Part shown: positions 4,440-57,288 of the stretch, in pieces
How the letters are laid out: each line of letters starts with the position of its first letter
Position numbering within the stretch: the first letter of the stretch is position 1
Assembly (NCBI RefSeq): GCF_003967015.1
Contig: NZ_AP017560.1
Coordinates: 4,028,048 to 4,092,047 of the forward strand
Length of the DNA: 64,000 nucleotides
Origin: Pseudanabaena sp. ABRG5-3
GTDB lineage: Bacteria > Cyanobacteriota > Cyanobacteriia > Pseudanabaenales > Pseudanabaenaceae
Reading direction: 5' to 3'
Translations under genes and position numbers: made by a program
Notes under the pieces: model-generated
What the model saw: the letters and a program-made list of their open reading frames with translations, nothing else
Databases searched by the model: none
Told to the model about the DNA's origin: nothing

Positions 4440-4490
4440 CCAGAAGTTTTTTGAAAGTGTTGCTTCGCAACACTTTCAAAAAACTTCTGG
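4440..4490. repeat. Perfect palindrome, 24-bp arms, TTC loop
   Basis: The left arm begins CCAGAAGTTTTTTG and ends GTGTTGC. After the three-base loop TTC the exact inverse follows. It belongs to the palindrome family of this genome, whose core is GC-NNN-GC. Confidence 0.9.
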
Positions 4491-5419: not shown

Positions 5420-5476
5420 AGTGAAGTACAGGTTTGTTTCGCCGCCTTCGGCGGCGAAACAAACCTGTACTTCACT
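5420..5476. repeat. Perfect palindrome, 27-bp arms, TTC loop
   Basis: The arm runs AGTGAAGTACAGG to TTTCGCCGCC, then loop TTC and the exact inverse. It is one of the longest uninterrupted stems in the window. Confidence 0.9.
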
Positions 5477-6549: not shown

Positions 6550-6692
6550 TGCATTTTCGCCTCAATGACTAGATGCAATAATTATCAGCTTTTAGCAATA
6601 TTTTTGTAAATAAACCCGCGTTATTCGTGATTTTTGGAAATATTTTGCCACCTTGATAACAACGTTAAAACCTCCTCTAACGTAAGTTAAAA

Positions 6693-6753
6693 CATACAAA
6701 ACCAGAAGAGAGTGGCGGCGCTTCGCGCCGCCACTCTCTTCTGGTTTTGTATG
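6693..6753. repeat. Perfect palindrome, 29-bp arms, TTC loop
   Basis: The arm runs CATACAAAACCAGAAG to GGCGGCGC; loop TTC; exact inverse. It lies in the 275-base divergent region (6550-6824) between the GH19 gene and purK, about 70 bases before the purK start. Confidence 0.9.
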
Positions 6754-6824
6754 CTAACAAGACTGGCGACAGCTTATAATAAGAGGCTATTTGGCAATTT
6801 ATAGATTGATTCAGGAATTTTGTA

Positions 6825-25610: not shown

Positions 25611-25668
25611 CTTACTTTTCTATTGTGCCAAAAAAACTATGAACAAGGGGCTTAAGCCCCTTGCCTAT

Positions 25669-35549: not shown

Positions 35550-35701
35550 TTAACGTCAGTTCGGGTTAAGTTAGCAAATTTTCAAAGACCAAAAGTAAAA
35601 GCCTTGCTACGCAAGGCTTTTACTTTTGGTCTTTGAGAGAGGCTTTGCTACGCAAAGCCTCTCTCAAAGACCGTTTCAAATTATTCCGAACTCGCGTTAA
35701 T
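35550..35701. repeat. Nested palindromes within a MITE-like unit
   Basis: Outer inverted repeats TTAACGTCAGTTCGG (35550) and the inverse of TTAACGCGAGTTCGG (ends 35701) match at 13 of 15. Inside are two perfect palindromes that share six bases: 35582-35636 (26-bp arms, TAC loop) and 35631-35669 (18-bp arms, TAC loop). Confidence 0.7.
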
Positions 35702-49268: not shown

Positions 49269-49386
49269 ATATAGCCATGAAAGACTTAATTAGGACATAA
49301 AACCCAAAAGATGAGTTGCGGCGCTTCGCGCCGCAACTCGTCTTTTGGGTTTTGATTTGTCCTAGCTATCTCTTTCATGGCTATAT
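49269..49386. repeat. TATAGC/AGGACA repeat family, copy 2 (118-bp palindrome)
   Basis: Head TATAGCCAT at 49270 and AGGACA at 49292 (22 bases apart). The core AAAACCCAAAAGATGAGTTG to CGGCGC, loop TTC, and inverse has one wobble pair. The tail TGTCCTA to GGCTATAT inverts the head. Almost the whole space between two kinase genes is palindromic. Confidence 0.85.
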
Positions 49387-52637: not shown

Positions 52638-53636
52638 CTATTGCCAGTTTTTACTGGCTTTAGTAACTGCACTAGCATTAATTTCGACATCTTCTCGAAT
52701 ATTGCGCCCATGACGGGGATCGGCCAGTAGTAATTGCCGAGTCTGTTGGTAGGCTTCTTTCAACCGTCCACCCTCAAACATGCGGCGATTCATCGCAAGG
52801 TCGCCTTTTTTCAGCCCTTTGTAATCTATAGCAAAAGCTTCGGTGGTCATTTTAAGTTGTTTAGCAACAGAGGCAAAAACTTCTTGGGGTTTAGTTTCGA
52901 CAGCTTTCATCACTTCAAACCAAGTCTCGATAAAGCTAACTAGCTCATCTTGTTTGGTAGTAACAATGCTAGAACGAGTTGCCACTCCATCAATGACTAC
53001 GCTATCTACATCCGCAGTCGTATGAATTACCTTACCTCCAACATTTTTAGCTGCATCTGTCATGAGAGGTTCCCATAGAGTCGATGCACTAATCTCACCT
53101 TTTTTGAGCATATTTGCGCCACGCTCGTTGATGACATCTACAATTTCGACATCCTCTGGCTTTAATTGATTTGCCTTAAGAGCTTCGAGGAGCACCAAGT
53201 GCGAAACCGTGCTGAGTTTTGCACTGACTTTCTTACCTTTTAAATCTTTCACAGATTTAATTTTAGGAGCGGCGGCAATGCCATCGGAACCAGCAGAAAT
53301 ATCGACAACCATTACAAACACAGGCTTTTCTTCAGCAGAATCCACCTGCATCACTTCTGGTAAGGGAACAAAACTCACATCCTGTGCCCCCCTCATTGTG
53401 GCGCGAATATTGTCTTGTTGATTGATAAAACGGATAAACTCTACATCTAAGCCATGCTTACGAAACAATCCTGCTTCTTTGGCATACAAGGCAATTTGAT
53501 AACCTGGCCAGCTATTGAGACCGACCTTAAATGGTTTTAGTGTACTTTCATTACTGAAGCTACAAGCTTTGATAGCGATCGCAGTTAAGCAAGTACATAA
53601 AATTAGTGCAAAAACCTTTAAAAATTTAGACTTCAT
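52638..53636 (-). CDS. Orphan NMT1/SsuA-type substrate-binding protein
   Basis: About 332 aa from ATG 53636 (MKSKFLKVFALIL). The signal peptide ends near AIKACS, a lipobox-like site, so it is probably anchored in the periplasm. The mature protein has the pattern of nitrate/sulfonate/taurine/thiamine-precursor binding proteins: FKVGLNSWPGYQIALYAKEAGLFRKHGLDVEFIRF, SVKDLKGKKVSAKLSTVSHLVLLEAL and EISASTLWEP. No permease or ATPase gene is next to it. It lies between two sensor-kinase genes on the same strand, each with a periplasmic domain, so it might present a ligand to one of them. The ligand is unknown. Confidence 0.88.
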   Translation of the reverse strand: MKSKFLKVFALILCTCLTAIAIKACSFSNESTLKPFKVGLNSWPGYQIALYAKEAGLFRKHGLDVEFIRFINQQDNIRATMRGAQDVSFVPLPEVMQVDSAEEKPVFVMVVDISAGSDGIAAAPKIKSVKDLKGKKVSAKLSTVSHLVLLEALKANQLKPEDVEIVDVINERGANMLKKGEISASTLWEPLMTDAAKNVGGKVIHTTADVDSVVIDGVATRSSIVTTKQDELVSFIETWFEVMKAVETKPQEVFASVAKQLKMTTEAFAIDYKGLKKGDLAMNRRMFEGGRLKEAYQQTRQLLLADPRHGRNIREDVEINASAVTKASKNWQ

Positions 53637-53923
53637 AGGACTGTGATCATAGTGAATGAAATAACAAATATCGATCAAATGTCAGTTTAAAAATAGCGCT
53701 AATATTTATAAATTTGTCGTTTTTTAACAAGATATAATTAATTTTGAAAATATGCCCCGTCACATTTTCAAAATTACTGTCATCGTCAGTGAGAGATGGA
53801 TAGACCTAAACATTACCTTCTTTGCAATGAAAGATCCATTTTTAGTTTCTCCTAAAATGCAGTAAATCTTTCCGCTAAATTAGAAGAACTTAAATATATC
53901 TTTAGCATTGGTTATTTCTATTG

Positions 53924-54180
53924 TATAGCAATGTAAGAGATAGCTAGGACAAATCAAAACCCAAATAAATGAAGGGGGAGCATCTCACTTTGGCGTAGTC
54001 CAAATTTTCCTAAGCCTAGAACAAGGGGCTTAAGCCCCTTGTCTTTGCCAAATGTTCCAAAGTGAGATGCTCCCAATGAAGGCGGCACTTCGTGCCGCCT
54101 TCATTTATTTAGAACAAATCACAAACCCAGAAGCGAGTGACGGCACTTCTGGGTTTGTGAAATTGTAAGATTGGCGACAG
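53924..54180. repeat. TATAGC/AGGACA repeat family, copy 3 (interrupted)
   Basis: Head TATAGCAAT at 53924 and AGGACA at 53946 (22 bases apart). Its palindrome, AAATAAATGAAGGCGGCAC-TTC-inverse, is split by the element at 53976-54075 and becomes perfect when that element and one copy of the target repeat are removed. Confidence 0.85.
53976..54075. mobile_element. 100-bp MITE-like element with 8-bp target duplication
   Basis: The ends are perfect 18-bp inverted repeats, GGGAGCATCTCACTTTGG. It is flanked on both sides by AATGAAGG (53968-53975 and 54076-54083). Inside is a palindrome CAAGGGGCTTAAGCCCCTTG. It codes for nothing and must have been moved by a transposase encoded elsewhere. Confidence 0.9.
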
Positions 54181-57100
54181 CTATATGTCTAACAATGCTT
54201 GAATTTTTTGGGACAAAACTTTGAGGCGCACAGGCTTAGCTAGATATTCATTAGCACCTGCCTCTAGACATTTCTCGCGATCGCCTGTCATCGCTAAAGC
54301 CGTCATCGCAATGATCGGAATATTCTCTAAATTTGGATTGTTGCGAATTTGCTTAGTTGCCTCAAGTCCATCTAGTTCAGGCATTTGAATATCCATCAAA
54401 ATCAAATCAGGCTGATGGGTTTGCGATAGGGCGATCGCCTCCAATCCATTTTTAGCGATGAGTACCCGATAGCCATCGGCTTCTAAGTAGTTAGATACAC
54501 TATAGATATTAGCTTCATTGTCCTCCGCCAATAAAACAAGAGGAACTTGATCGATATCATGGGGTGTAGCGGTATTAACTAAGGCAGTTTCAGAGATGGA
54601 TGGCTCTCTTACTATAGGAGGAGTACGGAAATAAGTCACACAGGGTAACTCAATGGCGACACAACTACCTACACCAAGTTCGCTAGTGATCTCGACCTTG
54701 CCTCCATGAAGTTCGACAATTCGCTTGACTAAAACCAGTCCCAATCCTGTGCCTTCATAGCGACGATTTAAAGCGCTATCAATTTGCACAAAGGGTTGAA
54801 ATAGCCTATTGATATTTTCTGGCGAAATGCCGATACCTGTATCCATCACAGCAATTTGGATGAATGTTTGGGGGATACGATCACTAGAATCTGGAACGAG
54901 ATCGATGCGTTGAGCTTTGAGGGTGATGGAACCTCCCTCTGGTGTAAATTTGACCGCATTGTTGAGTAAGTTAATTAAAACTTGTCGAACGCGCCGTTCA
55001 TCAACGAAGAGTTCGGGTAGGTGTAGTGGTAGTTGGATCTCTAACTGGATATTCTTTTTTGCAGCCTGTTGCTTGATAAAAAGCAAACTGGATTGGACAA
55101 GATTTTTGATCGTAACTGGGGCGCAATTCAGTTCGATCTGCCCTGCTTCAATTTTGGCTAAATCCAGAACTTCGTTGATTAACTCAAGTAAATGCAATCC
55201 ACTCCGTTCAATAGTCTGTAAAGCCTTGATTTGACGCTCATTAACCATGCCATAGGTATGTTCCTGTAGCCCTTCTGCCATGCCGAGAATGGCATTGAGA
55301 GGAGTACGCAGTTCATGGCTCATATTGGCAAGAAATTCATCCTTAAGGCGCGTGGCGCGAAGGAGTTCTTCATTGGTTTGCTGCAATGCGGCAGTGCGTT
55401 CCTCCACCTTGGCTTCTAGCTCTTGGTTGAGCTGTTGTTGTTGTTGCTCAGCGCGCTTGCGATCAGTGATATCCCGAATAATAATTAGGACTTCCTGTTG
55501 ATTGAGAGGAGCGATACGCACTTCTTCATGGAGCAGTTGCCCATCAAAATCAAAGCCCTGCTCGTAGATCTGCAAACTATTGCTAGCGATCGCTTTTCTT
55601 GCATAATCAAGACGCTGTTCCGCCATCTCAGGCGACAAAATGCTGTAGACTTCAGGTTGATCAGGTGTGCGACATGGCTCTTTAACCTGCACATTCTTGC
55701 CTCCTGACATCTGAAGATAATGCCCTTGCAAGTCCATTTTGATCAATAGATCAGGCATTGTCTCTACAATGACCCGATTCGTTAATTCACTTTGCTGAAG
55801 GGCGATTTCTGCCTGCTTGCGATCGCTAATGTCACGAACCATAAATAGGACTTCATCTTCACCACTTTTGACGACCCTGACCTCCTCATATTGCAGGCGA
55901 TCGCCGACTTGTAATTGTTGTTCGTAAATTTGTAAGTTACCTGTGTCTAGGGCTTGGTGCAAATAGTAAAGCTGGCGATCGGCAAGATCGGCAGGTAAAA
56001 CGCTAGCCATCGACAAACCTGTAATGTCAATATCCTGTGCAAGCATCGCAAAATCACGGGCTGGCGCAAAAAACTCACGATAAATTCCATCAGCCCCCAC
56101 GCGAAACATGAGATCAGGAATAGCCGATAATACAGCTCGACTTTGGGATTCGCTCTCAGCTAATGCAAGTTCTGCCTTTTGTCGTTCATAGAGAGCGGCT
56201 TTCTGGTCGCTAATGTTTCGTACCAGTGCCACAACCTCATTCTTTCCATAGGGAACAATGCGAACCTCCTCAATTTGGGCTTTACCATCAATAGATAGAT
56301 TCTGCTCATAAATCTGGATAGAATTTGTTTCTAGTGCTAGTTGGATAAATTCCATTCGTTTTTGGGCTGCGCTAGCTGGCAGAGTCTCAGACACGTAGGT
56401 TCCCACAATTTTATCTAAATTCCCAATCACAGGAAAATTGGGACTGGCAACAAATTCAAGGTAAACACCATCCCGATTGATCCGCATAATTAAGTCAGGA
56501 ATGGCATCAATTAGAGCGCGATAATGGGCTTCACTTTTTTGTAAGGCTATCTCTGATTTCTCTAGCTGCAATAATTGATCTTGCAGTTTTTGGTAATTAA
56601 TTGCTTGCTCAAGGGCGATCGCATGACTGATATATCTGGTAAATAATGCCGCGATCATAATTGATAGGAGCAAACTCACGATCACTATTTGAATACGGAG
56701 TACCTTCGCTTGGGATAATGCAAGATCAACCTCTATTTCCTGCTGTTCTAAAACTTCTGTATAGGGAACTAGGCGCTCAGAGAAATTAATAAATTCGGCA
56801 AAATTCTCATTTTCAAATATTTGTTCTAAACGCGATTCAGCTATTACTACAGTGTTGGATGATTTAGCAAGCGATTCTAATTGTCCAATGCGCTTTATTG
56901 TATCTTGCTGAAACTTTCTAACTAATCCCTCATACTCATTTAAGAGAGGATTGAGTCCTACTATTCTTGAACTTTTTCCTGAAGAGTGATAACTTTCCAA
57001 AAGCGTAAGCACTTTTTGAATATGCTCCAATAATTTGCTGCTTTCTTGATGGAATCCCTCTAGACTATTGATTTTTAGTGATGCTTTTTGCGTGGGGCGA

Positions 57101-57288
57101 TTATTTAAAATACTGATTTTGAGTGCATCAATAAACCGCCGTTCTTGTGACGTGGCTTGACTTTTTTGTAGTGCTTCTTGATGATAATAATTTCCCAGCA
57201 AAAAACCACTCGTCGAACCTAAGAAAGTCATACTTAGGGCGATCGCATATCCATAAACTATTTTTTTGCTTATATACATAATGAGCAA
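54181..57288 (-). CDS. Membrane hybrid kinase with three tandem PAS
   Basis: 1035 aa. A transmembrane helix at about 12-30, a helical periplasmic domain of about 165 residues, and a second helix at about 200-220. Three PAS domains follow (about 250-365, 380-490, 500-610). They are unusually alike: each starts AIPDL or TMPDL and carries IYEQ and EEVR, so they are an internal triplication. HisKA (His658 in NMSHELRTPLNA), HATPase (DTGIGIS, GTGLGLVLV) and a receiver (Asp966 in LILMDIQMPELDG) complete it. It is 17 bases downstream of the 1700-aa kinase, so they form an operon. Confidence 0.93.
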   Translation of the reverse strand: MLIMYISKKIVYGYAIALSMTFLGSTSGFLLGNYYHQEALQKSQATSQERRFIDALKISILNNRPTQKASLKINSLEGFHQESSKLLEHIQKVLTLLESYHSSGKSSRIVGLNPLLNEYEGLVRKFQQDTIKRIGQLESLAKSSNTVVIAESRLEQIFENENFAEFINFSERLVPYTEVLEQQEIEVDLALSQAKVLRIQIVIVSLLLSIMIAALFTRYISHAIALEQAINYQKLQDQLLQLEKSEIALQKSEAHYRALIDAIPDLIMRINRDGVYLEFVASPNFPVIGNLDKIVGTYVSETLPASAAQKRMEFIQLALETNSIQIYEQNLSIDGKAQIEEVRIVPYGKNEVVALVRNISDQKAALYERQKAELALAESESQSRAVLSAIPDLMFRVGADGIYREFFAPARDFAMLAQDIDITGLSMASVLPADLADRQLYYLHQALDTGNLQIYEQQLQVGDRLQYEEVRVVKSGEDEVLFMVRDISDRKQAEIALQQSELTNRVIVETMPDLLIKMDLQGHYLQMSGGKNVQVKEPCRTPDQPEVYSILSPEMAEQRLDYARKAIASNSLQIYEQGFDFDGQLLHEEVRIAPLNQQEVLIIIRDITDRKRAEQQQQQLNQELEAKVEERTAALQQTNEELLRATRLKDEFLANMSHELRTPLNAILGMAEGLQEHTYGMVNERQIKALQTIERSGLHLLELINEVLDLAKIEAGQIELNCAPVTIKNLVQSSLLFIKQQAAKKNIQLEIQLPLHLPELFVDERRVRQVLINLLNNAVKFTPEGGSITLKAQRIDLVPDSSDRIPQTFIQIAVMDTGIGISPENINRLFQPFVQIDSALNRRYEGTGLGLVLVKRIVELHGGKVEITSELGVGSCVAIELPCVTYFRTPPIVREPSISETALVNTATPHDIDQVPLVLLAEDNEANIYSVSNYLEADGYRVLIAKNGLEAIALSQTHQPDLILMDIQMPELDGLEATKQIRNNPNLENIPIIAMTALAMTGDREKCLEAGANEYLAKPVRLKVLSQKIQALLDI

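What the first reader, a model, noticed from the sequence alone, without database searches (positions are those of the whole stretch)
53968..54083. 100-bp MITE-like insertion with perfect ends and target duplication, inside a palindrome
The element 53976-54075 has perfect 18-bp inverted ends (GGGAGCATCTCACTTTGG) and an 8-bp direct repeat AATGAAGG on each side. Removing it with one AATGAAGG restores a perfect host palindrome (AAATAAATGAAGGCGGCAC-TTC-inverse). This fixes both the exact boundaries and the order of events, and shows a recently active non-autonomous element.
Basis: seen in the sequence. Interest (0 to 1): 0.66.

Follow-up and report, generated by a model that had tools for sequence, protein, structure and literature searches.

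The report
Short non-autonomous transposon (ISKra4-type MITE)
A 99-base "hitch-hiking" transposon with no genes of its own, present in a dozen copies in this cyanobacterial genome, was very probably moved by the transposase of a known insertion-sequence family (ISKra4), of which only a fragment was found here; it is a clear but ordinary case.

Summary
The element is window 53976-54074 (99 bp, one base shorter than stated), with perfect 18-bp inverted ends and an 8-bp target duplication (AATGAAGG). Taking it out leaves a host palindrome with 19-bp perfect arms. The host genome holds 12 copies (87-100% identical) plus a fragment; 11 of 12 have perfect 8-9-bp duplications and one an 8-of-9 match. 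A sibling copy's site is unoccupied in related species. At the window's own locus two sister species lack the element, but also the palindrome.

The ends are those of the ISKra4 family (prokaryotic Mutator superfamily; ISMich2-like two-ORF layout). Full-length elements of 1162-1234 bp with such ends exist in congeners. In the host genome only a C-terminal transposase remnant with one end was found, so the MITE is probably stranded now.

The palindrome context is not special: about 17% of intergenic positions in the window lie in such palindromes. One oddity remains: the MITE's 22-bp core palindrome also sits in a second, unrelated MITE-like repeat and at 27 other listed sites.

The parts
53968..53975 (.). 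left copy of the 8-bp target-site duplication AATGAAGG
53976..54074 (.). 99-bp MITE with ISKra4-type ends; too short for a transposase gene
   Evidence: folds as one long hairpin, -50.5 kcal/mol, z = -8.69
53976..53993 (+). terminal inverted repeat GGGAGCATCTCACTTTGG
54057..54074 (-). terminal inverted repeat GGGAGCATCTCACTTTGG (reverse strand)
54021..54042 (.). 22-bp perfect palindrome ACAAGGGGCTTAAGCCCCTTGT at the MITE core; the same palindrome is dispersed elsewhere in the genome and sits in a second MITE-like repeat
54075..54082 (.). right copy of the target-site duplication AATGAAGG
53963..53975 (.). outer part of the left arm of the host palindrome, cut off by the insertion
   Evidence: (I3)
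54075..54110 (.). rest of the host palindrome; the duplicated AATGAAGG keeps a 14-bp stem (54075-54088 / 54092-54105) intact
   Evidence: (I5)

Best explanation
The element is a non-autonomous miniature transposon (MITE) of the ISKra4 family of the prokaryotic Mutator superfamily (p-MULT 4), whose congener ISs are closest in layout to the ISMich2 group. An ISKra4-type transposase acting in trans bound the two 18-bp ends and moved the 99-bp unit, probably through a circular copy as described for this superfamily (literature, not shown here). It joined the unit to staggered cuts 8-9 bp apart, which gave the target duplication. Shown here: ends, duplications, copies on three contigs, an unoccupied site for a sibling copy, and full-length ISs with matching ends in congeners. 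Inferred: transposition in trans, the circular intermediate, and loss of the transposase source from this genome. At this site it lies about 106 bp downstream of a hybrid histidine-kinase gene's 3' end and about 300 bp upstream of an ABC-transporter substrate-binding gene, inside a terminator-like palindrome. The target duplication rebuilt a 14-bp stem, so little functional effect is expected.
For: Twelve copies of 99-104 bp, ten on contig C1 and one each on C4 and C5, 87-100% identical. Eleven of 12 have perfect 8-9-bp duplications and one an 8-of-9 match. A 96% copy in another species sits in its own 8-bp duplication GTCCTATT. The site of copy L018 is unoccupied in G021, G002 and G014. The remnant in the own genome joins the C-terminus of an ISKra4 transposase to the end GGGAGCATGTCACTTTTT. 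Full-length ISs of 1162-1186 bp in congeners begin and end with GGGAGCAT(C/G)(T/C)CA and have 8-9-bp duplications where one was found. The three of their transposases scanned pass the NF033572 ISKra4 cut-off. The IS L157 (1234 bp) differs from the MITE end at 1 of 18 positions on one side and 2 of 18 on the other. The family description, inverted repeats of 18-39 bp and direct repeats of 8 or 9 bp, fits (PMC3942029 section 11, read).
Against: Beyond the 18-bp ends the MITE shares no significant sequence with the six congener ISs compared, so the exact parent is not identified. No intact ISKra4 transposase was found in the own genome. Six paired-end elements among the 40 congener regions fetched (L157, L160, L161, L164, L166, L194) gave no perfect duplication of 5 bp or more, L157 being the IS with the closest ends. 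No transposition was observed.
Confidence: 0.94

Rival explanations
1. A MITE of another family with duplications of similar size (IS66, IS1, IS256, ISLre2; sizes partly recalled) whose ends resemble ISKra4 ends by convergence.
For: The MITE interior is not IS-derived. An IS66-like transposase fragment lies next to the remnant end in the own genome.
Against: Congener IS ends match the MITE at up to 17 of 18 positions, and the full-length ISs with such ends that I examined carry ISKra4-family transposases. At the other two IS66-like loci fetched (L092, L093) the nearest matches to a 16-bp end have 5 mismatches.
Confidence: 0.04
2. Not a transposon copy but a fixed regulatory or terminator hairpin that spread by recombination or selection.
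For: Strong fold and a core palindrome that is dispersed on its own.
Against: Target duplications at 12 of 12 copies (one imperfect), different sites, three contigs, an unoccupied site in relatives.
Confidence: 0.01
3. The MITE is targeted to host palindromes or terminators, so its position in the palindrome is a mechanism rather than chance.
For: 4 of 12 copies lie in palindromes with stems of 17-23. Against window intergenic DNA, P for 4 or more of 12 is 0.04 at stems of 17 or more. 4 of 12 against 0 of 16 congener IS copies: Fisher P = 0.024, in different genomes.
Against: P = 0.20 at stems of 12 or more, 0.14 at 15 or more, and 0.09 at 19 or more, where only 3 of 12 qualify. 0 of 16 congener IS copies and 0 of 4 other MITE copies with a resolved duplication lie in palindromes with stems of 15 or more. 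Thresholds were chosen after seeing the data. Survival in harmless intergenic DNA explains the placement.
Confidence: 0.1

Closest known systems
ISKra4 family, ISMich2 group (p-MULT 4; PMC3942029)
   Same: Terminal inverted repeats like GGGAGCAT(C/G)TCA, 8-9-bp duplications, congener ISs with two ORFs in a -1 frame relation.
   Different: The element here has no transposase and its interior is unrelated to the six ISs compared. The frameshift itself was not shown.
Nezha and other cyanobacterial MITEs (Nezha recalled; seen as a citation in PMC10969869)
   Same: Short non-autonomous element with inverted ends and target duplications in a cyanobacterium (for Nezha, recalled).
   Different: I did not have Nezha's sequence; its relation is untested.
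183-185-bp MITEs of congeners G005, G013 and G023
   Same: The 18-bp ends are identical in the G005 and G013 copies; in G023 one of the two ends differs by one base. 8-9-bp duplications in L158, L159 and L190; none found in L160.
   Different: The G013 copy L158 keeps 37-38 bp of IS terminal sequence on each side (86-89% to L165), as expected of an internal-deletion derivative; the 99-bp family does not.
Small dispersed repeats (SDR) of cyanobacteria (Elhai 2008; content recalled, seen only as a citation in PMC3116915)
   Same: A palindromic unit of 20-odd bp dispersed alone and inside mini-transposons.
   Different: Not tested whether the 22-bp palindrome here is one of the described SDR families.

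Membership tests
MITE | short (under a few hundred bp), no transposase gene | tested here: met
   99 bp, too short to hold a transposase
MITE | terminal inverted repeats | tested here: met
   18 of 18 bp
MITE | target-site duplication at multiple independent insertions | tested here: met
   11 of 12 perfect, 1 of 12 at 8 of 9 bp
MITE | unoccupied site in relatives | tested here: met
   copy L018: G021 and G002 have one copy of a target-like stretch and no element; G014 has a shorter, diverged spacer and no element. Window copy: absent in G002 and G021, but the palindrome is absent too, so no clean empty site there. The other 10 copies were not tested
ISKra4 family (p-MULT 4) | inverted repeats of 18-39 bp and direct repeats of 8 or 9 bp | tested here: met
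   18-bp ends; 8 bp in 5 copies, 9 bp in 6 copies, 8 of 9 in one (criterion)
ISKra4 family (p-MULT 4) | same ends as full-length ISKra4 elements | tested here: met
   L157 (G013, 1234 bp) differs at 1 and 2 of 18; the other types compared match over 12-16 bp
ISKra4 family (p-MULT 4) | internal sequence derived from the parent IS (usual for MITEs, not a defining feature of the family's ends) | tested here: not met
   no significant match inside the ends to six congener ISs
ISMich2 group (congener ISs) | transposase in two ORFs joined by -1 frameshift | tested here: met
   6 of 6 ISs examined have a 75-90-aa ORF1 in frame 2 overlapping ORF2 in frame 1; frameshifting itself not tested, and no phylogeny was built
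ISKra4 family | mobilisation by ISKra4 transposase | not testable with these tools
   needs a transposition assay

The most novel reading that the evidence does not exclude
The 22-bp palindrome ACAAGGGGCTTAAGCCCCTTGT in the MITE core is itself a dispersing unit (an SDR- or REP-like micro-element) that has lodged in the middle of at least two unrelated MITE families, ISKra4-type and one with TATAGC ends, and uses them as vehicles. The 'MITE' would then be a nested composite of two mobile units.
Probability: 0.2. Interest if true: 0.55.

Novelty: new member of a known kind. Interest (0 to 1): 0.24.

Why it matters
It links a cyanobacterial MITE family to the ISKra4/ISMich2 transposons. It also gives a clean case of MITE amplification without a resident helper: the host has 12 MITEs and no intact ISKra4 element found, while its close relative G002 has two full-length ISs with such ends and no full-length hit to this MITE. 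The shared core palindrome raises a small, testable question about micro-repeats nested in MITEs.

Tried and rejected
IS66 as parent: the first lead, an IS66-like ORF next to the remnant end, was dropped when the end proved to follow an ISKra4 C-terminus and the other two IS66-like loci lacked a close match to the end.

Palindrome targeting: tested against window intergenic DNA and against congener ISs; suggestive at best. In one search the copies L019 and L020 had been joined without their duplications; one search repeated all 12 with the right ends, and the count of 4 of 12 stayed.

Promoter-upstream targeting as reported for some ISKra4 elements (PMC3942029 section 12): a crude scan of 12 copies found no site with more than 9 of 12 promoter matches and no common distance; no statistics were run.

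The one viral-contig hit to the 18-bp end lies inside an open frame and looks like a chance match. No match in plasmid records. No Rfam family in 53000-55000. Four plasmid regions with ISKra4 genes were fetched and not analysed further.

Dropped rows: of 40 congener regions fetched, 19 gave an element with a perfect duplication under my end pattern, 6 had paired ends but no perfect duplication (L157, L160, L161, L164, L166, L194), and 15 had no usable pair of ends (13 from G022, whose ISs have other ends, plus L193 and L195). One search used the 19 plus L059. No copy lacking the 22-bp palindrome was listed for the second MITE-like repeat (6 full copies, 1 partial) or for this MITE (listings capped), which speaks against the novel case.

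Full report
Observation. The element occupies 53976-54074 (99 bp). Its ends are a perfect 18-bp inverted repeat, seen nowhere else in the window even with 3 mismatches (0.04 expected). AATGAAGG flanks it on both sides at 53968-53975 and 54075-54082. Without the element and one AATGAAGG the host sequence is a palindrome with 19 perfect pairs and a TTC loop. In the present sequence the right-hand AATGAAGG rebuilds a 14-bp stem.

Copies. A BLAST of the 99 bp against the whole genome (5.66 Mb, 8 contigs, 99.81% complete) gives 12 long copies: ten on C1, one on C4 and one on C5. There is also one 54-bp fragment. Identity to the window copy is 87-100%; L010, L011 and L012 are identical to each other. 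With ends placed by hand for L019 (5-bp tandem insertion near one end) and L020 (the most diverged), 11 of 12 have perfect duplications, five of 8 bp and six of 9 bp, and L020 has 8 of 9. The unaided script had found 10 of 12. None of the 12 lies inside an open frame of 100 aa or more; L014 may interrupt a shorter one (by eye).

Relatives. The search examined 58 genomes, G000 included; 32 of 58 matched, mostly through the core palindrome only. One 96% full-length copy is in G012, which matches Phormidium tenue FACHB-1050, in its own 8-bp duplication. Partial or diverged copies at 76-90% are in G003, G006, G016, G021, G023 and G025. The flanks of copy L018, joined, find an uninterrupted stretch in G021 (89%), G002 (87%) and G014 (78%). 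G021 and G002 carry one copy of a target-like sequence, with a few differences; in G014 the spacer is shorter and lacks it. At the window's own locus G002 (97% protein identity for the neighbouring gene) and G021 have neither MITE nor palindrome. The insertion is therefore absent there, but this is not a clean empty site, and the palindrome too is a recent or variable feature. The sites of the other ten copies were not compared.

Source. The own genome has one ISKra4 match: a C-terminal remnant of about 40-66 aa followed by an end GGGAGCATGTCACTTTTT. In the genus 23 of 26 genomes match the ISKra4 model and 14 of 26 pass its cut-off. 24 of 26 have the 18-bp end with up to 2 mismatches, against 0 of 26 for the reversed control pattern. 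Of 40 congener regions fetched, 19 gave an element with a perfect duplication: 16 IS copies (15 of 1162 or 1186 bp and one 833-bp deleted copy; 9 bp in 14, 8 bp in 2) and 3 MITEs of 183-185 bp. Six more had paired ends without a perfect duplication, among them L157, the 1234-bp IS with the closest ends. Three transposases scanned score 248-285 bits on NF033572 (cut-off 205). Two overlapping ORFs in a -1 frame relation are present in 6 of 6 ISs examined, which PMC3942029 gives as the mark of the ISMich2 group (section 11 read). The same section states inverted repeats of 18-39 bp and direct repeats of 8 or 9 bp for the superfamily. The MITE interior has no significant match to six ISs, whereas the 185-bp MITE L158 keeps their terminal sequence.

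Context. The MITE lies between two genes on the minus strand: a hybrid histidine kinase (54181-57288) whose 3' end is about 106 bp away, and an SsuA-like substrate-binding protein (52638-53678; below the curated cut-offs). The one terminator-like site found by the scan of 53600-54300 is the neighbouring hairpin 54160-54119 on that strand, untouched by the insertion (0.7 expected from shuffles). Long palindromes are very common here: about 17% of intergenic positions in the window lie in stems of 15 or more with loops up to 12 and one mismatch allowed. Hence 4 of 12 MITE copies in palindromes is not clearly more than expected: P = 0.20 at stem 12, 0.14 at 15, 0.04 at 17, and 0.09 at 19 where 3 of 12 qualify. 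None of 16 congener IS copies and none of 4 other MITE copies lie in one.

Core palindrome. ACAAGGGGCTTAAGCCCCTTGT lies at 54021-54042; its 18-bp centre recurs in the window at 25645. Merging the places listed gives 47 distinct places with a match to it: 13 in this MITE (fragment included), 7 in a second 96-bp repeat with TATAGC...GCTATA ends (6 full), and 27 alone. Both searches scored only 40 of 75-78 candidates, so these are lower bounds, and not every place was checked for the exact 22 bp. Matches also occur in 6 genomes of other genera of the class. Whether it moves on its own is open; no palindrome-free version of either MITE was listed.

Literature. Searches were search listings. Passages of PMC10969869, PMC9208149 and PMC3116915, and passages plus sections 11 and 12 of PMC3942029, were read. 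None of what I saw describes an ISKra4 MITE in this genus; only a library of open papers was searched, so this is weak evidence of novelty.

Noticed in passing
window-wide, e.g. 4440-4490, 5420-5476, 6691-6755, 35580-35638 and 49299-49353: Unusually many long near-perfect palindromes (stems of 15-31 bp, short loops, often GCTTCGC-like centres) in intergenic DNA: 33 distinct ones listed in the 64-kb window with the MITE removed, one of them within a predicted ORF.
   Followed up: partly
54119-54160: A hairpin whose loop region holds GAGTGACGGCA, resembling one arm of the GAGTGGCGGC palindromes seen elsewhere in the window; looks like a nested palindrome that lost one arm (by eye).
   Followed up: no
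L242-L248 (G000:C1:4020941-4021036 and others): A second MITE-like 96-bp repeat with TATAGC...GCTATA ends shares the same 22-bp core palindrome as the ISKra4 MITE.
   Followed up: partly
L094 (G000:C1:3744000-3748500): An ISKra4 remnant beside an IS66-like transposase fragment, next to what looks like a duplicated piece of a nearby ORF.
   Followed up: no
L158, L159, L160 and L190 (G013, G005, G023): A family of 183-185-bp MITEs with the same 18-bp ends in congeners (one end of the G023 copy differs by one base); L158 looks like an internal-deletion derivative of the 1186-bp IS.
   Followed up: partly
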